DNA of 37,230 bases from a virus. Shown piece after piece: positions 2,252-26,634 of this stretch. Location: positions 1-37,230 of IMG/VR virus record IMGVR_UViG_3300033552_000032; one strand, 5' to 3'. The number at the start of each line of letters is the position of its first letter. Within the stretch, counting starts at the first letter, position 1. The notes beneath the pieces are model-generated. The model made no database searches and had not been told where the DNA came from. It saw only the letters and a program-made list of their open reading frames with translations. Made by a program: the position numbers and the translations under genes.

Positions 2252-2835
2252 TAAGCACCAAGCCACCCAAGCCCAAAACCTGCCAGGTGTGTAAAACCAG
2301 CTTTACGCCTGCCAGGATGGGCGCTAAGGTATGCAGCCCATTTTGCGCCATGACGTTTGCCCGGTCGGTTAACGGTAAAGCGGCCAAGACTGCAGCCATC
2401 AAAGACAAGCGCGAGACAAAAGCCAAACTAGAGAAACTGAAAAAGCCATCACAGCACGAAGCTGAATGTCGCGTGATTGTGCAAAAGATGGCCCGCATAC
2501 GTGACCGCAACGACGGATGTATCTCATGCCACATGCCTGTTCACTATGACGGGCAGTGGCACGGGTCACATTTTCGCCCAGCCGGGAATAACGCAGCGGT
2601 TCAATTTCACCTCTGGAATATTCATAAATCGTGCGCCCAGTGCAACCTGTTCAAAGGCGGGAACTTAGGCGTTTACCGCCCTCGCTTGATTGCAAAGATT
2701 GGCATTGGCCGGGTGGAGTGGCTGGAGTCGCAAAACCAAGCGGTCAAAACTAACGTGCCTTATCTGATTCGTTTTAAAGAAGTCATGGGCAAGCGGTTAC
2801 GCAGGATTGAAAAACAATTAAAGGGGCAACTATGA
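2248..2835 (+). CDS. ninG: NinG/Rap recombination protein
   Basis: The ATG at 2248 overlaps the previous stop and has GGAGGG eight bases upstream. A longer non-ATG start exists but lacks support. The 195-residue product has an N-terminal zinc pair (CQVC at 12-15, CSPFC at 29-33), a lysine-rich helical middle, and a second metal site. That site includes CISCH, HGSHFRPAG and CAQCNLFKGGN. This is the arrangement of lambda NinG (Rap), a structure-specific nuclease that acts on recombination intermediates. The C-CxxCN pattern is HNH-like. The gene sits in the usual nin-region position between replication and late control genes. Confidence 0.9.
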   Translation: MISTKPPKPKTCQVCKTSFTPARMGAKVCSPFCAMTFARSVNGKAAKTAAIKDKRETKAKLEKLKKPSQHEAECRVIVQKMARIRDRNDGCISCHMPVHYDGQWHGSHFRPAGNNAAVQFHLWNIHKSCAQCNLFKGGNLGVYRPRLIAKIGIGRVEWLESQNQAVKTNVPYLIRFKEVMGKRLRRIEKQLKGQL

Positions 2836-3044
2836 AAGCTAACGATTCACAAGTAGCAGGTACGCACTACAGCAGCCAAAAAATTCAATGTTGGGACTAC
2901 ATCTTGGCAAATGGCATTGGGTACATGGAGGGCAACGTCATTAAATATGTCAGCCGCTGGGTTGATAAGGGCGGCGTACAGGATTTGTTAAAGGCGCGTC
3001 ATTACCTGGACAAGCTGATAGAGGCCTGTGGGGACAAGGCATGA
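2832..3044 (+). CDS. DUF3310 family protein
   Basis: The 70-residue product contains HYSSQKIQCWDYILANG followed by GNVIKYVSRWVDKGG and LLKARHYLDKLIE. These three blocks define DUF3310, a small all-helical domain found alone or fused to other domains in many phages. It is sometimes labelled a nucleotide kinase, and I see no P-loop to support that. It overlaps ninG by four bases (ATGA) and overlaps the next start in the same way. Confidence 0.88.
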   Translation: MKANDSQVAGTHYSSQKIQCWDYILANGIGYMEGNVIKYVSRWVDKGGVQDLLKARHYLDKLIEACGDKA

Positions 3045-3169
3045 AGCCGCATATTCGCAAAATCAACAAAATCTGGCGCTGTAGCCTTTCAGGTCATTAC
3101 GGCTGTGGTTTGGGTTTTACGCCAGCAGAGGCATACAAGGATTGGTCTGTGATGTGGGCGGCTGTATGA
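3041..3169 (+). CDS. Small protein, 42 aa, function unknown
   Basis: The frame starts in an ATGA overlap with the DUF3310 gene and ends in one with the next gene. The product begins MKPHIRKINKIWRCSLSG and contains CGLGFTPAEAYKDW, a pattern seen in short phage proteins where an aromatic-cysteine strand is followed by TPxxAYxxW. Function is unknown. Confidence 0.6.
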   Translation: MKPHIRKINKIWRCSLSGHYGCGLGFTPAEAYKDWSVMWAAV

Positions 3170-3672
3170 GCGCAGTACCAGCATCAACCGTCAGCTTAAA
3201 AACTATGGCTGATGGCACGCTAAGAATTAGCTTCGATGTAGAGCCAGGACAAGCGCAGGACGCTTTCAAGCTCTTTGCTGCACCCGGTACGCAAGTGGCT
3301 ATTGCAGCGCTTAAAGATGGTTCGTTCTTAGAGCAATCAAAAGAGGTAGACCGTGGATTAAACATTGGGCTAGGTGCTACTATAAATATAGCAGAGCCTA
3401 AGCCACGCGAACAACTAGGTGATGCTTGCTATAGAACTGTGTTGTGGTGTAACGAACCTAGCTTTTGGAACTTTGTTAATGGCGCGATATTTACTAATGA
3501 TGCGGATGTTCTTTTTGTTGACAGCGTAGTAACAGCAGCCGACGCGGTTAAAAATATTTGCAAAGTCTATTCACGCAAAGAGCTAGACACTGACCCCGAA
3601 GCAAATAAAACATGGCATAGAGAGATACGCCAGCCTTACGCCGATTACCTGAAACGCTTGGAGGCAGCATGA
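3166..3672 (+). CDS. Hypothetical protein, 168 aa
   Basis: The ATG at 3166 is selected because it forms an ATGA overlap. The frame could also open at 3142 with a non-ATG codon, but that would intrude on the previous gene. The product has an N-terminal beta-rich half (TVSLKTMADGTLRISFDVEP) and a C-terminal helical part ending RQPYADYLKRLEAA. I do not recognise a family. The position in the middle operon, between small coupled genes, suggests an accessory role during early infection. Confidence 0.7.
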   Translation: MSAVPASTVSLKTMADGTLRISFDVEPGQAQDAFKLFAAPGTQVAIAALKDGSFLEQSKEVDRGLNIGLGATINIAEPKPREQLGDACYRTVLWCNEPSFWNFVNGAIFTNDADVLFVDSVVTAADAVKNICKVYSRKELDTDPEANKTWHREIRQPYADYLKRLEAA

Positions 3673-5313: not shown

Positions 5314-6511
5314 GGTTTTTGAGCCGCTGCTAAATCCAGCACGCTATAAAGGCATACACGGCGGGCGCGGCTCAGGCAAGTCGCACTTTTTTGCTGAGGA
5401 CTTGATTGAATGGCAGATACGCGAAAAGGTTGACGCGGTTTGTTTGCGTGAGGTTCAAAAGTCGTTAAAGTTTTCAGTTAAAAAACTGCTTGAAAGCAAG
5501 ATCAGCGGCATGAATGCTGGGGCGTACTTTGAAGTACAAAACGAGCAAATAAAAAGCGTTAACGGCGGCGTAACGATCTTCCAGGGGATGCAAGATCACA
5601 CCAGCGATAGCATTAAATCACTGGAGGGTTTTAAGGTGGCCTGGTTCGAGGAAGCGCAATCGGCCAGCCAGCGCAGTTTAGACCTGTTGCGGCCAACGAT
5701 ACGCGCACCGGGCAGTCAGTTATGGTTTAGCTGGAATCCCGGCAAAGCGACAGACCCGATTGATATGCTGCTACGCGGTGCAACGCCGCCGCCTGATGCA
5801 ATTGTTGTCGAGGCTAACTACAAAGATAACCCTTGGCTGCCGCCTGAGTTGCTTGAGGAAATGGAATATGACAAACGCCGCGACCCTGACAAATATGCAT
5901 GGGTTTGGCTTGGCAAGTACCAAAAGAACAGCAACGCACGGGTATTTACAAACTGGAAGATTGAAGAGTTTGAACGACCGCCAGGAACAATTCACCGATT
6001 AGGCGCTGATTGGGGTTTTAGCGTAGACCCAAGCGTTTTAGTTCGTTGCGACATTGAAGGCAACCGCTTGTATGTTGACTACGAAGCGCACGCAATAGGC
6101 TGCGAGATTGTCAATCTACCCGAATTGTTTATGTCTGTGCCTGAAGCTGAGAAATGGCCGATAACCGCAGACAGCGCACGGCCTGAAACCATCAGCCACA
6201 TGCAAAAAAACGGCTTTCCAAAGATTCGCAGTGCTATCAAAGGCGCTAAGAGTTTGGAGGAGGGCGTGGAGTTCTTGAAATCGTTTGACATTGTTGTGCA
6301 TCCGCGTTGCACACACCTGATAGATGAACTCACGCTGTACAGCTACAAAACAGACCCGCTAACAGCCGCTGTCTTACCGATATTGGCAGACAAAGATAAC
6401 CACTTGATCGACGCGCTTAGATACGCCTGCGAAGGGGCGCGGCGTGCCAAGAAACCCAAACCAGAAACTGAGCAAACTTATTATGAACCTTCAAACTGGA
6501 TGGCGGCTTAA
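5273..6511 (+). CDS. Terminase large subunit
   Basis: The 412-residue protein is the DNA-packaging motor with ATPase and headful or end-cutting nuclease domains. Walker A is GGRGSGKS at residues 30-37 and Walker B is VAWFEE at 122-127. A coupling-motif-like segment, WFSWNPG, lies at 151-157. The nuclease domain shows GADWGFS (D246), TADSARPE (D300) and DKDNHLIDALRYA (D374/D380), the acidic triad of the RNase H-like fold. No ATG is available before the conserved TAEVFEPLL segment, so it must start at TTG 5273 or TTG 5285, inside the small subunit gene. This implies translational coupling. Confidence 0.95.
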   Translation: MSASLSVLQIRTAEVFEPLLNPARYKGIHGGRGSGKSHFFAEDLIEWQIREKVDAVCLREVQKSLKFSVKKLLESKISGMNAGAYFEVQNEQIKSVNGGVTIFQGMQDHTSDSIKSLEGFKVAWFEEAQSASQRSLDLLRPTIRAPGSQLWFSWNPGKATDPIDMLLRGATPPPDAIVVEANYKDNPWLPPELLEEMEYDKRRDPDKYAWVWLGKYQKNSNARVFTNWKIEEFERPPGTIHRLGADWGFSVDPSVLVRCDIEGNRLYVDYEAHAIGCEIVNLPELFMSVPEAEKWPITADSARPETISHMQKNGFPKIRSAIKGAKSLEEGVEFLKSFDIVVHPRCTHLIDELTLYSYKTDPLTAAVLPILADKDNHLIDALRYACEGARRAKKPKPETEQTYYEPSNWMAA

Positions 6512-8734: not shown

Positions 8735-9853
8735 GTGGCAGATAACACAACCTTGAATGCAGGCACAGCAGGCGATTTAATCGCAACCGATGAGCTGACG
8801 ACAATTAACGGCGCGGCGGCGGCAGCTGGCTTGAAAGTACAGCGCGTTAAAGCTGGTTTTGGTGCTGACGGTTCGTTTACTGATGTGAGCGCCCTTAATC
8901 CGCTTCCCATCACAATGTCTAATACATTGGCGTTGACTGATACGCAACTTAGGGCGACGCCTGTACCTGTCAGCGGTGCGGTATCTGTAACGGCTAACGG
9001 CATTATTTCAACGGCAAACAGTACATCCGTGGCGCTGGCTGCTGGGGGCGTATTTACAGGCCCAGCCGAGGATATAACCGAGTTTGCCGATGTTCGCCTG
9101 CTGGTGTTTGCAGACCAGCCAAGCGCGGTTGATGGTTTGCAGCTGCAACAATCAACAAATGGCACGAATTGGGATTCGGTAGACGCTTTTACCGTCCCAG
9201 CTACAACGGGCAGGCCTTTTAGCATTGGCGCATCGGCGCGATTTTTTCGCATTGTTTACACCAACGGCGCCACAGCACAGACCGCCTTTAGACTGCAAAC
9301 TAAACTTTATAAAGCCTACGGAAAAGGCGCATCTGTCAGGCCGCAAGATGGCCGCAGCAATGAAAATGACTTTGAAGAGATTTTGGCGTTTGCAATGGGT
9401 TACAACGGCACTAGCTGGGACAGGCTACGAGCTACGATAGCAAACGGTTTGGCGGTTGACGTTACCCGCTTGCCTGCTGTGCCTGAAATGCGTGCGGCGA
9501 CATTGCATGTATCAGCAACAGGCGCGGTCAATACAGCGGTTACGGCCTCGTTGCCTGCACCAGCGGCGGGCTTGTTTCACTACATCACCTCTATTCAGCT
9601 TGACAAGTTATATACGGCCTTAGGGGTTGCGTCTGGTGCGGGTGTGGTCATTACATCAACCAATCTACCCGGCGCACCTAACTGGCTAACAGAGCAGGCA
9701 GCGGGGGCAGTAGGCACAGCAGTCACAGTGATTGATTACCGGCCCACAACGCCATTAAAGGTATCAGCGGCGGCTACGATTTCAACCCTTGCAGCGCCTG
9801 CACAACTACAAACAATCTGGCGCTGGAATGTGTCCTATTTCACGGCGGCATAA
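8735..9853 (+). CDS. Structural protein, probable head or tail accessory
   Basis: GTG at 8735 is used, directly after the portal stop, with AAGGCGA upstream. The 372-residue product is low in charge and rich in alanine, threonine and valine, which suggests beta structure. Residues 35-45 (QRVKAGFGADG) followed by LRATPVPVSG are recurrent in phage virion proteins of unknown detail. Its place between portal and scaffold suggests a head-surface or decoration protein. I cannot assign it to a P22 counterpart. Confidence 0.7.
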   Translation: MADNTTLNAGTAGDLIATDELTTINGAAAAAGLKVQRVKAGFGADGSFTDVSALNPLPITMSNTLALTDTQLRATPVPVSGAVSVTANGIISTANSTSVALAAGGVFTGPAEDITEFADVRLLVFADQPSAVDGLQLQQSTNGTNWDSVDAFTVPATTGRPFSIGASARFFRIVYTNGATAQTAFRLQTKLYKAYGKGASVRPQDGRSNENDFEEILAFAMGYNGTSWDRLRATIANGLAVDVTRLPAVPEMRAATLHVSATGAVNTAVTASLPAPAAGLFHYITSIQLDKLYTALGVASGAGVVITSTNLPGAPNWLTEQAAGAVGTAVTVIDYRPTTPLKVSAAATISTLAAPAQLQTIWRWNVSYFTAA

Positions 9854-17589: not shown

Positions 17590-18645
17590 ATGGCCTTGGG
17601 AATTACAGCAGCAATGGTGTTTCAGGCAGCAGCGCCTATGGTATTAGGCGCGGTGATGGGCGGCGGCTCTGATGCGCCGCAAAAAGGCGCAGACCAACAG
17701 GTGCAGGCCAATAACGCAGCCATTGCAGAGCAACGGGCAGCAGCGGCGCAACAGCGGGCAGATTTAGCGCCGTGGGCTAGCAGCGGCGGCGCGGCTAACA
17801 CTGAGCTGATGCGCCGGTTAGGTATCGGTGGCAATGGCCGCACAGGTAGCTACACGCCTAAAACAATGGAGCAATTGCGCGGCGAAATGCGCGGGCAGTT
17901 TACAACGCAAGGCGCGGGCGGTGGTGGGGGTGGTGGAATTGAGTTTTTGACAAGAGAGCAAGACCCTGAAAACCAGTTTGGGGGGATGCGATTTGCTGCG
18001 CCACAAACGCCGCAAAGCTATCAAACTCAGTTTGACGAGGCAGGATTTAACACCGCTGTAAACAACGCATTTGACGCCCAAGGCGCTGCACGGGAAGGTG
18101 AGGTAGACCCGCTGTATGGTTCACTCATGCGTAAGTTTGACCAAAGCGATTTAGACAGCGACCTGGTTTATCAAAACGGTTTGAAGTTTGGCCTTGATAC
18201 CGGCATTAACCAACTAAATGACCGGGCAGCATCAGGCGGCAATTACGGCTCAGGCGCTGCATTAAAAGCACTGACCCGCTTTGGTAACGACTACGGCACA
18301 ACAAAAACAGCCGGGGCGTATGACCGCAACATGGGCGAAAAGAATCAGATGTTTGGGTTCCTATCAAGCCCGTCGCAACAAGGCCAAAGCGCAGCAGCAG
18401 GGCAGGGCGCGGCTGGGCTGGGTAGTGCCAATCAAATTGGCGGCTATCAGACAGGCATAGGCAACGCGCAAAGCGCCGGGACGATAGGCAGGGCCAATGC
18501 TGTAAACGAGCAGATTGGCGGGGCTACTGATGCGTTTAAGTGGAATCAGCTTTTAAATAGAGGCGGTAGCAATTCATACGATATGGCGCGAAACGGTATG
18601 GGGTTTGACCGCTATTTGTCTGGTAATTCTGGCTCGGGAGATTAA
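17590..18645 (+). CDS. Ejection protein, gp7-like position
   Basis: The 351-residue protein has a hydrophobic start (LGITAAMVFQAAAPMVLGAV) and an alanine-glutamine helix. A low-complexity glycine run (GGGGGGG) follows around residue 113, then glycine/glutamine-rich repeats. It is the first of three consecutive genes after the tail module, occupying the place of P22 gp7, gp20 and gp16. These proteins are packed in the head and pushed into the cell to make a DNA channel. Sequence identity to gp7 is not visible by eye, so this is a call from order and composition. Confidence 0.7.
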   Translation: MALGITAAMVFQAAAPMVLGAVMGGGSDAPQKGADQQVQANNAAIAEQRAAAAQQRADLAPWASSGGAANTELMRRLGIGGNGRTGSYTPKTMEQLRGEMRGQFTTQGAGGGGGGGIEFLTREQDPENQFGGMRFAAPQTPQSYQTQFDEAGFNTAVNNAFDAQGAAREGEVDPLYGSLMRKFDQSDLDSDLVYQNGLKFGLDTGINQLNDRAASGGNYGSGAALKALTRFGNDYGTTKTAGAYDRNMGEKNQMFGFLSSPSQQGQSAAAGQGAAGLGSANQIGGYQTGIGNAQSAGTIGRANAVNEQIGGATDAFKWNQLLNRGGSNSYDMARNGMGFDRYLSGNSGSGD

Positions 18646-18648
18646 TTA

Positions 18649-19929
18649 ATGGCTACTGATGCAAATATCCTGATGGGCTACAAGCCTATAAAAACCGCTA
18701 ACCCAATGGAAATGTACGAAGCAGGGCAGCGCATAGAGCAAAACCGTTTAACGGGCTTGATGAACAACATGAAAATGGATGAGTATCAGCGCGGCGTTGA
18801 ACGTTCTGGTTCATTGCGTGACATTACCAGAGGTTTCGGCAAAGATTCGGCTGAAAATGTAGGTAGATTACATCAAGGCGGGTTTTTAAAAGAAGCATCA
18901 GACTTACAAAAAGCGGATGGCGACTTCGCAAAGGATGCGGCTACAACAGGTAAGACCAGACTGGAAGCTACTGGCATAGCCATGCAACACCATCGGGATT
19001 CGGTGCATTTAATTCAAAGCGCTGATGATGTAAAGCGCTGGGTAACGGCGGGCTTTGAGAATCCTGTTTTAAATCCTGTATTCGCATCACGCGGCACGTT
19101 AGAGCAGCAATTACAAAATGTTGGTTCGCAGGTAGTAACCCCGGCGCAAATTGAGAGCTTTAAACAACTTGCAGGCGTTAACGCTGATACGTTTATTAAA
19201 CATACCCGGCCTGATGCGAATGCAAGGCTGCAAGCAGAAACAACGCTAACAACTAATGCAGTGAACGACAAGACAAAACGTGATGGTCAGGTATTGACTG
19301 ATAACCGGGCGCGTGATGCGAATGCCAACCTCACACCGGACGGCGGCACAAACCAGTCTGTGCTTAACAAACAAAACGGCAAAGCTCCCGCTGGTTTCAG
19401 GTGGAAATCTGACGGCGGTTTAGAGTCAATCCCTGGAGGCCCAGCCGACCAAAAATCGCAAAACACAGAGGCAGGCAAGCAGACTGTAGATACGGTGGTG
19501 GCGACTTTGCGAAGCGCTTATGAATCCCTTGATAAGGGCGGCGGCATTACCAGCACAAATGAAGGCGCGTTTTCGAATCTGTCTCGCTCTGCATCCAAGT
19601 CAAGCCTTGGGCAGATATTGGGCGGCGCTGTAGGCTCTTCAAACCAAAAAGAGCGTGATTCAATTGCACAAACCCGGCCATTGTTGCTGCAAGCCATCAT
19701 GAAGGCTACGGGTATGTCAGCTAAACAAATGGATTCAAATGCTGAATTGAAACTGTACCTTGCGACTGCTACTGACCCCACTTTAAGCTTGCAGGCTAAT
19801 CGTGAGGCGCTTGAGAGAATTGAGTCTCTTTATGGGAGTAAATCAGTTACTGCTGCCCAGCCGCCTACTACCAAACCTGACGCGGCGGGTATGGAGGCTG
19901 AAATGCGTAAGCGGGGGCTTATCAAATGA
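18649..19929 (+). CDS. Ejection protein, gp20-like position
   Basis: The 426-residue product is charged, helical and rich in N, Q, K and D, without signal peptide or membrane segment. Residues 16-50 (TANPMEMYEAGQRIEQNRL) begin with a pattern often found in phage internal proteins. Its gene lies between the gp7-like and gp16-like genes and overlaps the next one by four bases. GGGAG eight bases upstream supports the start. It is expected to travel with DNA into the host. No domain was assigned. Confidence 0.7.
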   Translation: MATDANILMGYKPIKTANPMEMYEAGQRIEQNRLTGLMNNMKMDEYQRGVERSGSLRDITRGFGKDSAENVGRLHQGGFLKEASDLQKADGDFAKDAATTGKTRLEATGIAMQHHRDSVHLIQSADDVKRWVTAGFENPVLNPVFASRGTLEQQLQNVGSQVVTPAQIESFKQLAGVNADTFIKHTRPDANARLQAETTLTTNAVNDKTKRDGQVLTDNRARDANANLTPDGGTNQSVLNKQNGKAPAGFRWKSDGGLESIPGGPADQKSQNTEAGKQTVDTVVATLRSAYESLDKGGGITSTNEGAFSNLSRSASKSSLGQILGGAVGSSNQKERDSIAQTRPLLLQAIMKATGMSAKQMDSNAELKLYLATATDPTLSLQANREALERIESLYGSKSVTAAQPPTTKPDAAGMEAEMRKRGLIK

Positions 19930-22136
19930 GCAACTACAGCGCCATGAGCGATGCTGACCTGATGGCGGCTTACAAGTCGTCAAAAGACCCGTTTGGTTCT
20001 GCTTTAGAAAAAGAAGGCGTGACCGGCAAACTTGCTGACGTTGCACGCTCGATTTATATGCAGGAAAGCAGCGGCGGGACAAATACAACGACTTCAAACC
20101 GTGGCGCTAGAGGTGGAATGCAGATTATTCCAGGCACGTTTAAAAGCGTGGCTGATGCGGATTGGGATATTAACAACCCTGAGCAAAATATGCGTGCGGG
20201 CATACGCTATTTGAAAAAGTTAGATATTCAATCGGGCGGCGACCCAGCACTAACGGCGGCGGGTTATTACGGCGGGCCGGGGGGTTTAGAAAAAGCACGG
20301 CGCGGCATTGCGGTTTATGACCCTGTAAATAAGAAGGCAGCGCCTAACACATTGGAGTACGGTCAGCAGGTCGTGGCACGTATGCCGCAACGGCCTGTTG
20401 TAGACACGTTAAACAAGGTTGCAGGCGCTGTAATGGGTTCGGCTAACGCAGCTACGCCAATGCAGGCAAATGCAGGCAAGTTGCAAGCGCCTGCAACCGC
20501 CCCTGCAAGCCCGTTTGATGGTATGTCAGACGCTGACCTAACGGCGATGTATCAGCAAAGCAAAACGCAACCTGCAAAGCCCGCAGCGCCAATTAATACA
20601 AACCCAACGGAAGGCAATTCGTTTTGGCAAAACGCGGCGGCGGGTGCTGGTAAGTTTGTAGCGGATACTGGAACAGGTATAGCCAAATTATCCAGCGACA
20701 TTGTGGACAATTCCCCACTGCCCATGCTGAAAATGTTTGATGCAGGCGTTAAAAAGCTGACAGGCAACGGCGCACAGCAAGTGAGCCAAAAACTAAACAC
20801 CGACATACAAGAAACACGCCGCCTTGATGCGCCACTAATGAACACGGGCGGCGGTATGGTTGGCTATTTTGCGGGCGGGGCGGCTACAGCGCCACTTATG
20901 CCAGCGACCAGCACAATTAAAGGCGCGGCGGCAATGGGCGGTGCGATAGGCGTAACCCAGCCAGCGATAAACGCACAGGAACGCGCTACGAATTTGCTGA
21001 TGGGCGCGGGTGCAGGCGGCGCGGGTCAAGGCGTGGTTAATAGCCTTGCACGCATCATTCGGCCTAACACTTCTCCGCAAGTCACTGCACTGATGAAAGA
21101 AGGCATCACGCCTACACCGGGGCAGATATTGGGCGGCGCATTCAAGCGCGTAGAGGATGGCTTAACAAGCGTGCCGATTATTGGCGATTCAATCAAGGCA
21201 GGCCAGCGCAGGGCGGCGGCTGATATGAACACCGCAGCCATGAATAGAGCCTTAAAACCCATAGGCGAAACCCTTCCCAAAGGCTTGCAAGGGCGTGATG
21301 CGGTCGAGCATGTAGGCAGCGCACTGTCTGCCAGATATGAGCGCCTGTTGCCAAAACTAGCCACGCAATCCGATGATGTTTTTACAGGTGAAATAAACAG
21401 CCTTAAATCGTTGGTCAGCAATGGCAACATGGGCGAAGCTGAAGCCCGTCAATTTGGCAAGATTCTGGAAAATCAGGTTATCGGCAAATTTCAAGGCCAA
21501 AACTCGATAAGCGGCCAAACCGTTAAAAGCATGGATGGTGAGTTGGGCAGGATTTCCAGCAAGTACATGAGCGACCCGTCTGCTGATAAACGTCAATTAG
21601 GCGAAGCTATTGTCGAATTGCAGTCGTCATTACGCGGTTTGATTCAACGCACGAATCCAGACTATGCAAAAGAATTAAAAGAGATTAATTCAGGTTATGC
21701 CAACTTCAAACGCATACAAAGGGCAGCGGCTGGGCTGGGCGCTGAGGATGGTATTTTTAGCCCCGCACAACTTCAAAATGCAGTGAAAGCACTTGACCGA
21801 AGCAAAGACAAGGGCAGGTTTGCCAAGGGCGATGCGTTAATGCAAGACTTGTCGGAATCCGGCAAAAACGTGCTTGGCAGCTCTGTGCCTGATTCGGGTA
21901 CACCGTACCGCATGGCCGCAACTTTGGGCGCTAGTGGTGGCGCTGGTGCATTTATGGGGCTGCCTGCGGCGGCTGGAATGCTGGCCGCACCGCTTGCTTA
22001 TTCAAGGCCAGGACAAAACGCACTTGCTTCTATATTGACACAACGCCCTAACGGGGCTGCTGACCTTGCAAAGTTATTGCGGCTTAGTGGTGCTAGTGTC
22101 GCTGGGGGCAGCGGGGCTGTCGCCGTACAAAAGTAA
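19926..22136 (+). CDS. Ejection protein with lytic transglycosylase domain
   Basis: The 736-residue protein carries an SLT-type domain near its start. YMQESSGG has the probable catalytic glutamate E47, followed by GARGGMQIIPGT and NMRAGIRYLKKL, then AAGYYGGPGG. This enzyme would open the peptidoglycan during DNA delivery. It is placed as P22 gp16. The rest has a middle hydrophobic segment (GGGMVGYFAGGAATAPLMPA) and long helices, and the C-terminus is also hydrophobic. A short motif, MSDADL, occurs twice, at about residues 7 and 199, each before a small acidic-aromatic stretch. Confidence 0.9.
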   Translation: MSNYSAMSDADLMAAYKSSKDPFGSALEKEGVTGKLADVARSIYMQESSGGTNTTTSNRGARGGMQIIPGTFKSVADADWDINNPEQNMRAGIRYLKKLDIQSGGDPALTAAGYYGGPGGLEKARRGIAVYDPVNKKAAPNTLEYGQQVVARMPQRPVVDTLNKVAGAVMGSANAATPMQANAGKLQAPATAPASPFDGMSDADLTAMYQQSKTQPAKPAAPINTNPTEGNSFWQNAAAGAGKFVADTGTGIAKLSSDIVDNSPLPMLKMFDAGVKKLTGNGAQQVSQKLNTDIQETRRLDAPLMNTGGGMVGYFAGGAATAPLMPATSTIKGAAAMGGAIGVTQPAINAQERATNLLMGAGAGGAGQGVVNSLARIIRPNTSPQVTALMKEGITPTPGQILGGAFKRVEDGLTSVPIIGDSIKAGQRRAAADMNTAAMNRALKPIGETLPKGLQGRDAVEHVGSALSARYERLLPKLATQSDDVFTGEINSLKSLVSNGNMGEAEARQFGKILENQVIGKFQGQNSISGQTVKSMDGELGRISSKYMSDPSADKRQLGEAIVELQSSLRGLIQRTNPDYAKELKEINSGYANFKRIQRAAAGLGAEDGIFSPAQLQNAVKALDRSKDKGRFAKGDALMQDLSESGKNVLGSSVPDSGTPYRMAATLGASGGAGAFMGLPAAAGMLAAPLAYSRPGQNALASILTQRPNGAADLAKLLRLSGASVAGGSGAVAVQK

Positions 22137-24026: not shown

Positions 24027-24487
24027 ATGCACACCTTACCCGGCGGCATATTGTCGTGGGCTTGATGACCCTTTGGGCGTTGATGTTTGTCCACACAGTA
24101 CGCGCTGCAACGCTAAACGAATTCATGGGTGGCTATGACCAACTGCTATTTCAATGGGCGGCTGCAAGCGCTTTGCTTGGCGGCGGTATTAGAACCATTT
24201 TGTCGCTTGAAAGTGATAAACGCGCAATACGCCATATTGCCTCTACTGCCTTATGGGACGCGGCCAAATCGCTGGTGGCCGGGATGCTGGCTTTTGTCGT
24301 TATTCAGGCGCTACGGTCTAGCGGTTTCATGATTCCAAGCGAGATACGTTTTACGGCTGTGCTTGTCGCAGGCTGGTGCAGGATGGCAGCTTTTGATTGG
24401 ATGCTGAACACAGGCAAGGACTGGCTTGAGGCACGCAAAACGCAGGTCGTTAATAAGCCTTTAGACGAAAAGAAGGATGCGCCATGA
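24023..24487 (+). CDS. Holin candidate
   Basis: The 154-residue product has an N-terminal hydrophobic segment (VVGLMTLWALMFVHTVRA) ending in a possible signal cleavage site and a second at WAAASALLGGGI. A third follows at SLVAGMLAFVVIQALRSSGF and a fourth at FTAVLVAGWCRMAAF. A charged C-terminus (LEARKTQVVNKPLDEKKDAP) follows. LydA-type phage holins have the same plan, with a basic middle and this kind of SLVAGMLAF segment. The gene is coupled by ATGA to the endolysin gene, the usual partner. Confidence 0.7.
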   Translation: MNAHLTRRHIVVGLMTLWALMFVHTVRAATLNEFMGGYDQLLFQWAAASALLGGGIRTILSLESDKRAIRHIASTALWDAAKSLVAGMLAFVVIQALRSSGFMIPSEIRFTAVLVAGWCRMAAFDWMLNTGKDWLEARKTQVVNKPLDEKKDAP

Positions 24488-25044
24488 GCAAGCCAAAACT
24501 GACTGAAAAGGATTATTCAATCGCAGCCGCAGCGATTGATTGTTCGGTAGCCGTCATTAAAGCAGTGTGCGCGGTAGAAGCCCCGCGCGGCGGCTTTCTG
24601 CCAAGTGGTGAACCGACTATTTTGTTTGAGCGTCACCAATTCAGCAAGCGCACCGAGCGTAGGTTTGACATATCGAACCCGCACATAAGCAACCGCAAGC
24701 CAGGTGGCTACAAAGGTAATCAGCAAGAACACGACAGACTAGCTGAAGCCGTAGCGTTAGACCGTGATGCGGCAATGGAGTCTACAAGTTGGGGCAAGTT
24801 TCAAATCATGGGCTTCAACTACGAACCAGCCGGTTTTGAAAGCCTGCAAGACTTTATAAATGCCATGTATGAGAGCGAAGGAAGGCAACTAAACGCTTTC
24901 GTGGCCTTTATTCGGCATGAAGGTTTAGCGGTGTTTTTGCGTCGGCATCAATGGGCAGAATTTGCACGTAGGTACAACGGGGTTGACTACGCCATTAACA
25001 GCTACGACACCAAGCTAGCTGCGGCACACAAGACATTCGCATGA
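24484..25044 (+). CDS. Endolysin, N-acetylmuramidase (DUF3380)
   Basis: The 186-residue product is one catalytic domain of the DUF3380 (N-acetylmuramidase) family. The hallmark is AVEAPRGGFLPSG followed by PTILFERHQFSK. E32 in VEAPRGGF is the expected acid. STSWGKFQIMGFNY and RYNGVDYAINSYDTKLAAA also match the family. It cleaves the glycan chain of peptidoglycan at the end of the cycle. There is no signal peptide, so it needs the holin. It is joined to its neighbours by ATGA overlaps on both sides. Confidence 0.92.
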   Translation: MSKPKLTEKDYSIAAAAIDCSVAVIKAVCAVEAPRGGFLPSGEPTILFERHQFSKRTERRFDISNPHISNRKPGGYKGNQQEHDRLAEAVALDRDAAMESTSWGKFQIMGFNYEPAGFESLQDFINAMYESEGRQLNAFVAFIRHEGLAVFLRRHQWAEFARRYNGVDYAINSYDTKLAAAHKTFA

Positions 25045-25490
25045 TCAGTATATACGCCCGTATAGCCGCTTTAGCCGCTGTCCTGGTGTTGCTTGCTGGC
25101 ATTGGCTGGCGCATAGATCAAGGCGGCTACAAACGCGCAAAAGCTGAATGGAATGCTGAAAAGCTAGCCACCAGCGAAAACGCACGGCTACGCGAACAGG
25201 CCGCGCAAAAATCAACTGAAAAGGTCGATCGTGAATATCAAACTGCTAAAAACCGTCTTGCTGCTGATAAGCGCGTCAGTGATGATCGGCTGCGCGACTT
25301 CCAAGCCGTCATTAGTGCAGATACAGCTACCAGCGCCGCCGGGCGAACTCATGGAACAGGCGGACTTGAGCGTGAGCTACTCGGAAGTTGTGCAGAGGCT
25401 CTTACAAGCATGGGGCAAACGGCTGACCGGCTGGAAGGAAAAATTGTAGGTTTACAAAGCTATATCAATAACGTCTGCCAAGCTAAATAA
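25041..25490 (+). CDS. Rz: Rz inner-membrane spanin
   Basis: The 149-residue product has one N-terminal membrane segment (IAALAAVLVLLAGIGW). A long charged helical periplasmic part follows (YKRAKAEWNAEKLATSENAR) and continues to about residue 90. This is the i-spanin plan. It is coupled to the endolysin by ATGA and contains Rz1 in another frame, and the pair fuses inner and outer membranes in the last step of lysis. The C-terminal part is less typical (LLGSCAEALTSMGQTADRL). Confidence 0.9.
   Translation: MISIYARIAALAAVLVLLAGIGWRIDQGGYKRAKAEWNAEKLATSENARLREQAAQKSTEKVDREYQTAKNRLAADKRVSDDRLRDFQAVISADTATSAAGRTHGTGGLERELLGSCAEALTSMGQTADRLEGKIVGLQSYINNVCQAK
25231..25449 (+). CDS. Rz1: Rz1 outer-membrane lipoprotein, embedded in Rz
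   Basis: The frame lies wholly inside Rz. It starts with GTG at 25231, with AAAAGG about seven bases upstream. The 72-residue product has a signal sequence (MNIKLLKTVLLLISASVMIGC) with a lipobox-like VMIGC, so cleavage would leave a lipidated cysteine at residue 21. LVQIQLPAPPGEL follows, a proline-bearing segment as in other Rz1 proteins. A short helix closes it. Confidence 0.85.
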   Translation: MNIKLLKTVLLLISASVMIGCATSKPSLVQIQLPAPPGELMEQADLSVSYSEVVQRLLQAWGKRLTGWKEKL

Positions 25491-25493
25491 ATC

Positions 25494-26471
25494 ATGGATA
25501 ACAACACACTAGCCAGAATATTACGCGAAGGCCGCAACTTCGCACAAAGCGCTTCAAACAGCATTGCAGGCAATGTCTCTGCACCTGTAGACGGCCTTGC
25601 ATGGCTGCTACGCAAAGCAGGCGTACCCATGCCAGATAACCCGATGGGCGGCAGCGATTGGATGGCACAGCAAGGGCTGACCCGTCCAACGAATCAAAAC
25701 AGCTTAAGCGGCTTGATGGGTGAATTTGCAGGCATGGCTGGGCCGCTTGTGGCTGGTGCGAAAGCTCCACAGATTGCAAAAGGCCTGCTTGGTATGGCTG
25801 ATAACTTGGCAGCGCCTAGGGCAATGAATCCGCAAACCGGGGCGGTGCTGATTAGCCCACAAGGAGGGTTGACCGATGCCGCCCGTGATGAGGCTATGAG
25901 GGCAGTGAAATACGATAGAGGCTGGTACAGAGGCGGGCCACAAATTACAGACGGCAAAAAAACTGGCGATTGGTACACGCGGATTAAAGACGAAGCCAGT
26001 GATTACGCAGCAAGAACACCAGGCGCAGAGGTTAGGGAATACGCCGCGCCAATCAATACAATTAAAAGCAATAGCGCCTATTCGCCACGGCTAGCACAAG
26101 ACATTGCAACCAAAGTCGAAGCGATAAGTCCAGAGGGCGCTAACTTGGCAAAACAACTGCGAGAATATTACGCCAACGACAAGATAAGCGGGCTGGAAGT
26201 GTGGAGCGGCTTATCCAAACATTTAGGTGATGACACCGCTGCCAACGTCTTGAAGGAATTAGGCTTTAAAGGGGTTGAGGGAGTTAAGAAGCCGCAATAC
26301 TTGCAAACCTTCCCTTCAACAATGGTGAGGGATGCTAACCAAGCAGCGTTTAACCCTGCTCGGTTAGATCAGAATGATATTTACGGCAAGGCTACGCCGG
26401 GGCTACTAGCGTTAACGGCTGGCGGGGCTGCGGGACTAGCGGCGTTTCGCAGTAATCGGGCGAACGAATAA
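25494..26471 (+). CDS. ART-PolyVal-like protein, possible ADP-ribosyltransferase
   Basis: The 325-residue product has an N-terminal module (residues 1-110, with SAPVDGLAWLLRKAGVP) that recurs in phage accessory and polyvalent proteins. Residues 141-172 read DRGWYRGGPQ, GDWYTRIKDEAS and then DYAA, resembling the arginine and aromatic-serine motifs of ADP-ribosyltransferases of the polyvalent family. The end (LGFKGVEGVKKPQYL, MVRDANQAAFNPARLD) matches the closing strand and the NAAFDPA-type tail. Where many members show E before the final strand, a Q (about 268) appears, so activity is doubtful. It follows lysis, in a place typical of accessory cargo. Confidence 0.65.
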   Translation: MDNNTLARILREGRNFAQSASNSIAGNVSAPVDGLAWLLRKAGVPMPDNPMGGSDWMAQQGLTRPTNQNSLSGLMGEFAGMAGPLVAGAKAPQIAKGLLGMADNLAAPRAMNPQTGAVLISPQGGLTDAARDEAMRAVKYDRGWYRGGPQITDGKKTGDWYTRIKDEASDYAARTPGAEVREYAAPINTIKSNSAYSPRLAQDIATKVEAISPEGANLAKQLREYYANDKISGLEVWSGLSKHLGDDTAANVLKELGFKGVEGVKKPQYLQTFPSTMVRDANQAAFNPARLDQNDIYGKATPGLLALTAGGAAGLAAFRSNRANE

Positions 26472-26634
26472 AAAAGATAGTGCCGCCTGAAGTATCTTTG
26501 ACATAAGCGTAATCAGCGAATGTGCAGGTAGCCACATTGGCTTTATGCTTTGATAAAAACTCATCTTCGTCAGTGCCTAAAAAATGGCGGTGCTTTTCAC
26601 CTTTGTTGATAGCCACAGCGTAAATCATGTACAT
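26392..26634 (-). CDS. Hypothetical protein, 80 aa
   Basis: The product (MYMIYAVAINKGEKHRHFLG, ending PRQPLTLVAPA) is a compact protein with several aromatic residues and no recognised motif. It runs against the end of the ART-like gene, overlapping it by 80 bases (convergent). It starts ten bases inside the end of the next upstream minus gene. That overlap supports its being the last gene of a three-gene operon. Confidence 0.6.
   Translation of the reverse strand: MYMIYAVAINKGEKHRHFLGTDEDEFLSKHKANVATCTFADYAYVKDTSGGTIFFIRSPDYCETPLVPQPRQPLTLVAPA

What the first reader, a model, noticed from the sequence alone, without database searches (positions are those of the whole stretch)
25494..26471. 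Cargo gene with ADP-ribosyltransferase-like (ART-PolyVal) features
After the lysis cassette, in a place where temperate phages put accessory genes, stands a 325-residue protein. It has YRGG, WYT...ASDYA and an NAAFNPA-like tail that match the ART-PolyVal pattern. A glutamine is found where a catalytic glutamate is common. It may be a host-modifying effector, injected or expressed, or an inactivated copy. Its own N-terminal module is shared with virion-linked proteins, which hints at packaging.
Basis: partly seen in the sequence, partly recalled or inferred. Interest (0 to 1): 0.7.

Follow-up and report, generated by a model that had tools for sequence, protein, structure and literature searches.

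The report
Phage effector with swappable enzyme domain
A gene at the end of the late operon of a P22-like phage encodes an apparent two-part protein, a conserved helical head shared by dozens of uncultured phages plus an exchangeable tail that here resembles an NAD-using ADP-ribosyltransferase, probably carried in the virus particle and injected to modify the bacterium.

Summary
The 325-aa ORF and its motifs are real. It lies 3 bases after Rz in the late operon of a P22-like podovirus. It has two parts. Residues 1-~120 are an unnamed, mostly helical module (no Pfam, PHROG, NCBIfam or PDB match). I found this module in 65 distinct proteins of uncultured phages. It is joined to different C-termini: two ART types, LPD23/zincin peptidases, GNAT and unknowns. 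It also occurs alone. Wherever neighbours could be typed they were virion or lysis genes. The closest module (76% identical) ends sharply at residue 119 and is followed by an unrelated C-terminus. Residues ~125-300 are an ART-like domain. One phage carries a 41% identical copy between TerL and portal, on another N-terminus. The YRGG-x11-WYT-x5-A-x2-YA spacing recurs exactly in a YRG branch of an ART-PolyVal-like family. P0001 has R where that clade has H. Q268 lies at or one residue from a column where E and Q both occur. Pfam does not recognise P0001, and both AlphaFold models were too weak to show the fold. Most likely it is a virion-delivered, host-modifying ART-fold effector: a new variant of polyvalent/MuF-type phage effectors. 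Packaging, activity and target are inferred.

The parts
25494..26471 (+). P0001, 325-aa two-module protein (N-module + ART-like C-terminal domain)
25494..25853 (+). N-module, residues 1-120: helical module shared with 65 distinct phage proteins; signature ASNSxAxNVSAPVDGLAWLLRKAGVPxPxxPxGGSDWMxxxGLT...AKAPQIAKGLL
   Evidence: helical model with pLDDT about 80 over this region
25866..26393 (+). ART-like domain, residues ~125-300
   Evidence: L314 41% identity; L203 26%, E 3e-6; family HMM
25926..25937 (+). Motif I YRGG (Y145-G148), R146 in the place of the usual H
25971..25979 (+). Motif II WYT (W160-T162)
26295..26297 (+). Q268, candidate third active-site residue (E/Q/D in relatives; P0001 spacing one residue longer)
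   Evidence: A5, A6
26325..26360 (+). Family tail VRDANQAAFNPA (RSRFAAFDPA in relatives)
25041..25490 (+). Rz spanin directly upstream (embedded Rz1-like frame 25231-25449)
   Evidence: phrog_2466 E 3.8e-7; sequence for Rz1
24484..25044 (+). Endolysin of the same operon
   Evidence: phrog_1224 E 2.5e-74
26530..26549 (+). Terminator-like hairpin downstream of P0001 (12 found vs 9.2 expected in region: weak)

Best explanation
The gene encodes a virion-delivered effector built from two exchangeable parts. The N-terminal helical module is the constant part and probably directs the protein into the virion or its ejection path. The C-terminal ART-fold domain is the payload. Made late with the lysis genes, it would be loaded into new particles, enter the next cell with the DNA, bind NAD+ through R146 and the WYT strand, and transfer ADP-ribose to a host macromolecule early in infection, as T4 Alt does. 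Shown: the two-module anatomy, the swapping of modules, the motif match and the late-operon/virion-cluster context. Inferred: packaging, the ART fold itself, activity and target.
For: N-module conserved (44-76% identity) while C-termini differ. L126 match stops at residue 119 and its C-terminus is unrelated. ART domain of P0001 found 41% identical on a different N-terminus between TerL and portal in L314. Exact YRG-x11-WxT-x5-A-x2-YA spacing shared with YRG-type ARTs. N-module genes lie after Hc3 (L094, L098), after the gp4-like gene (L084, L116, L118), beside portal (L083, L131), before scaffold and coat (L126, L132), between tail protein and amidase upstream of ejection-type proteins (L161), and between endolysin and integrase (L141). 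51 of 56 upstream neighbours are co-directional, most gaps under 20 nt. Published precedent: ARTs are the commonest modifying domain of packaged polyvalent proteins (PMC5512222; PMC9503650).
Against: P0001 has no Pfam/PHROG/PDB hit. Both AlphaFold models are low confidence in the C-terminus and Foldseek found nothing. The motif I-II region alone scores only E 0.23 against the YRG-branch HMM (above all 500 shuffles) and not at all against the whole-family HMM. H is replaced by R. Q268 is one residue off the family spacing. The N-module is not demonstrably homologous to any proven virion protein.
Confidence: 0.55

Rival explanations
1. Same delivered protein, but the payload is an NAD+ glycohydrolase (or NAD-binding decoy) that depletes NAD+ or counters NAD-based defence, not a transferase.
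For: Third residue is Q, not E; the literature notes that the H-Y-[EDQ] and R-S-E clades include NADases/NAD+-phosphorylases.
Against: Q also recurs at this column in relatives whose activity is unknown; nothing here tests the reaction.
Confidence: 0.2
2. Expressed but not packaged: an accessory gene of the late operon acting in the producing cell (or in the lysogen) for lysis timing, superinfection exclusion or defence.
For: Placed after Rz and before HNH/integrase, a usual site for accessory genes; L141 has an N-module gene between endolysin and integrase.
Against: No promoter-like site between Rz and the gene; in most relatives the N-module gene is inside head, tail or ejection gene clusters.
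Confidence: 0.17
3. Decaying or inactive ART copy, kept or drifting because of the N-module.
For: Catalytic H replaced by R, E by Q; tail degenerate (VRDANQAAFNPA against RSRFAAFDPA); 87-aa stand-alone N-modules exist (L195-L198).
Against: Intact ORF; 41% identity to L314 with WYRGGP, WYT, VREYA, VRDA, DIYG conserved, so this variant is itself under selection; the YRG form recurs in at least six other proteins.
Confidence: 0.15
4. The C-terminal domain is not an ART at all: motif resemblance only, with a shared C-terminal tail.
For: No confident fold; the profile match is carried mostly by the tail.
Against: Exact spacing of eight motif positions with YRG-type ARTs; relatives with the same tail score with PF18760, best 2.8e-8.
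Confidence: 0.12

Closest known systems
Polyvalent-protein ARTs (Tox-ART-HYD2 clade; Pfam PF18760 ART-PolyVal)
   Same: Phage origin, conserved family tail, motif I/II layout, association with LPD23 and metallopeptidase cargo in sister proteins
   Different: R146 instead of the strand-1 histidine; W-Y-T strand 2; Q instead of D; P0001 is not matched by the Pfam model; two modules only
MuF-type polymorphic phage toxins (PMC5576092)
   Same: Constant N-terminal phage module with variable C-terminal effectors encoded in the virion gene cluster
   Different: The N-module here gives no match to any Pfam family, MuF included; no neighbouring immunity gene was seen; found mainly in podovirus-type phages of uncultured hosts
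T4 Alt
   Same: Proposed delivery with DNA and early host modification; R in motif I, S/T-type second motif
   Different: Alt is R-S-E with a true E; no sequence match found; different N-terminus
P22 ejection (E) proteins gp7/gp16/gp20
   Same: The same phage type encodes its own ejection proteins (17590-22136) and P0001 may share their exit route
   Different: No detectable homology of the N-module with the window's ejection protein

Membership tests
Pfam ART-PolyVal (PF18760) | Score above the curated cut-off (31.2 bits) | tested here: not met
   No match of P0001 up to E 10; none in the window by six-frame search; relatives hit, best 2.8e-8
Tox-ART-HYD2 / polyvalent ART clade | Histidine in strand 1 | tested here: not met
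   R146 aligned with the H of HGT
Tox-ART-HYD2 / polyvalent ART clade | Tyrosine in strand 2 and D (E/Q) in strand 5 | tested here: inconclusive
   W160-Y161-T162 aligns with Y-A-T with Y under W; Q268 at +11 before VR where relatives have E/Q at +10
ART superfamily | ART fold | tested here: inconclusive
   pLDDT 65.6 and 58.6, Foldseek no match
YRG branch of the RSRFAAFDP-tailed ART family (defined here) | [YF]RG-x12-[WY]x[ST]-x5-A-x2-[YF]A and the tail xR...AAFxPxR | tested here: met
Polyvalent proteins | Two or more effector domains in one delivered protein | tested here: not met
   P0001 has one recognisable payload; sister proteins (L137, L154) have several
Polyvalent proteins | Packaged in the virion and injected | not testable with these tools
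   Only genomic context available
MuF polymorphic toxins | N-terminal MuF domain | tested here: not met
   No Pfam match of the N-module
P22-like podovirus (the genome) | P22 portal, P22 coat and head-closure genes | tested here: met
   PF16510 E 5e-161, PF11651 E 2e-21, phrog_578 E 9e-88

The most novel reading that the evidence does not exclude
The N-module is an undescribed loading/ejection tag of phages that defines a polymorphic-effector system outside MuF: one conserved ~120-aa head, found even alone as an 87-aa protein, onto which phages recombine different early-acting enzymes. In this phage the enzyme has an R-[S/T]-Q active site arisen inside an H-Y-[DEQ] ART lineage.
Probability: 0.4. 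Interest if true: 0.72.

Novelty: new variant of a known kind. Interest (0 to 1): 0.5.

Why it matters
If the N-module is a virion-loading tag, it gives a sequence handle for finding injected phage effectors without cultured hosts: any C-terminus attached to it becomes a candidate early host-takeover or counter-defence enzyme. It may also serve as a portable tag for loading proteins into podovirus particles. The YRG branch would offer a natural test of how the ART active site tolerates R for H and Q for E/D.

Tried and rejected
Direct homology searches with P0001 alone failed: Pfam, PHROGs, PDB, annotated phages and plasmids, viral and genome contigs. PF18760 search of 31 related contigs found only a sub-threshold match in L042. 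Two AlphaFold runs, with the N-module alignment and with a 26-row ART alignment, gave no usable C-terminal fold; Foldseek against PDB and BFVD was empty. Homology of the N-module to ejection-protein modules was rejected by hhalign. Profile searches of PDB with the ART and N-module alignments gave nothing credible. The whole-family motif I-II HMM did not separate P0001 from shuffles; only the YRG-branch HMM did, weakly. My first fixed-spacing DNA pattern was miscounted and was corrected. Searching the N-module or L126 in annotated phages gave only C-terminal ART-A relatives, such as Sulfitobacter phage phiGT1. The scan of one genome per species (84,980) found the N-module once, on a 6.6 kb contig of a metagenome bin, but that pattern search finds only fairly close relatives.

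Full report
What is there. The window is a 37,230-base virus record of a P22-like podovirus: terminase 5273, P22 portal 6515 (PF16510), P22 coat 11390 (PF11651), head closure 15475, ejection-type proteins 17590/18649/19926, endolysin 24484, Rz 25041, integrase 28488. The reported gene, 25494-26471 (+), is an intact 325-codon ORF that starts 3 bases after the Rz stop. There is no promoter-like site in between. It is therefore most simply the last gene of the late/lysis operon.

Two modules. P0001 alone found nothing in Pfam, PHROGs, PDB, annotated phages, plasmids, viral contigs or genome contigs. A degenerate pattern for its GGSDWM...GLT signature found 40 viral contigs, and nearly all encode a protein that aligns with P0001 residues 1-~120. 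An alignment-based scan added more. In all, 122 ORFs (65 distinct proteins) carry this N-module. Their C-termini fall into unrelated classes: ART of HGSPHKF type (22 by a pattern count, more by eye), ART with a RSRFAAFDP tail (6 plus combinations), HExxH peptidases with LPD23, GNAT acetyltransferases, at least two unknown types, and none at all. The closest module, in L126, is 76% identical over residues 15-119 and ends there; the rest of L126 is unrelated to P0001. No Pfam, PHROG, NCBIfam or PDB family names the N-module.

Where N-module genes lie. In P22-like relatives they follow head closure (L094, L098), follow the gp4-like gene (L084, L116, L118), precede portal (L083) or lie between portal and coat (L042). 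Elsewhere they precede portal (L131), precede scaffold and coat (L126, L132), lie between a tail protein and an amidase upstream of a protein family annotated as 'released from the phage upon host infection' (L161), or lie between endolysin and integrase (L141), the closest match to the window's arrangement. Neighbours are co-directional upstream in 51 of 56 cases, mostly with gaps under 20 nt. This is the basis for inferring virion loading. No proteomics was possible, and hhalign shows no homology with the window's own ejection protein.

The C-terminal domain. A scan seeded with the tail found a large family of viral proteins with the layout EALETARKNAVKMLGLPENNTAMDRA - ART core - RSRFAAFDPARINENDLLG. 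Members match Pfam ART-PolyVal, best E 2.8e-8. P0001 scores E 3.4e-9 against an HMM built without it, mostly on the tail. Most members have HGT in motif I. A minority have YRG, and in these the spacing YRG-x12-W/Y-x-S/T-x5-A-x2-Y/F-A equals that of P0001 exactly. The motif occurs nowhere else in 2.07 million residues and not in 20 shuffles, with the caveat that its classes were set after seeing P0001. A scan with that spacing found L314, whose domain is 41% identical to residues 125-325 and lies between terminase and portal on a different N-terminus. In L314 the gene is split over two frames.

Active site. The published polyvalent ART clade uses H, Y and D (PMC5512222), in a wider H-Y-[EDQ] group (PMC9503650). 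P0001 has R146, W160-Y161-T162 and Q268. Ten residues before the conserved xR of the tail, relatives carry E (e.g. L222, L253, L271, L292) or Q (e.g. L226, L237, L247, L233). P0001's Q268 is eleven residues before it, so it needs a one-residue bulge, as in the L235 group. L314 has E at the ten-residue position. So Q by itself does not argue for an inactive copy; the R for H change is the larger departure. The YRG branch (L215, L218-L220) reads R, S/T and WEA, which resembles R-S-E enzymes. I note this but cannot test it.

Fold. Two AlphaFold predictions (29 rows; 26 rows) gave mean pLDDT 65.6 and 58.6. The N-module is helical at about 80. The second model has short strands at YRGG and WYT but no ART fold, and Foldseek found no match.

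Verdict. P0001 is best read as a two-part, virion-borne, ART-fold effector of a P22-like phage. My separate estimates: ART relationship about 0.85, virion delivery about 0.6, enzymatic activity about 0.6. It is a new variant of an already proposed kind (packaged polyvalent/MuF-type effectors). The unnamed, promiscuous N-module is the most interesting part.

Noticed in passing
window 25231-25449 (+): A frame inside Rz starts VNIKLLKTVLLLISASVMIGCATS, a lipoprotein-type signal: likely the embedded Rz1 partner.
   Followed up: partly
L195, L196, L197, L198, L191 near 6001-6276: Stand-alone N-modules of 87-92 aa in the place where sister phages have N-module plus effector, followed at once by the next gene; the module may have a function of its own and cargo may be optional.
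   Followed up: partly
L200-L294: ART cores of very different sequence sit between a highly conserved head (EALETARKNAVKMLGLPENNTAMDRA) and tail (RSRFAAFDPARINENDLLGRADPRLL): the catalytic core itself looks exchanged as a cassette.
   Followed up: partly
L215, L217-L220: YRG branch with R, S/T and WEA at the three active-site places, resembling R-S-E enzymes inside a family that otherwise carries H.
   Followed up: partly
L055 2395-5697 (also L052, L059): 1101-aa protein in a P22-like phage with an S-adenosylmethionine lyase domain (PF23780, E 1e-6), related to the L042 N-module protein: possible anti-restriction cargo.
   Followed up: no
L084, L100, L103, L110, L112 C-termini: A recurrent N-module cargo with HSGS...GPSSY...SDHSKGP motifs and no family match.
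   Followed up: no
L314 2409-3403: The closest ART relative is encoded in two frames (ORFs 2409- and 2801-3403), a frameshift or sequencing error; its N-terminus is not the GGSDWM module.
   Followed up: partly
window 8735-9853 and L126 208-654: Protein after portal shares a 74%-identical C-terminal 150 aa with a protein just upstream of the closest N-module gene in a phage with a different coat.
   Followed up: no
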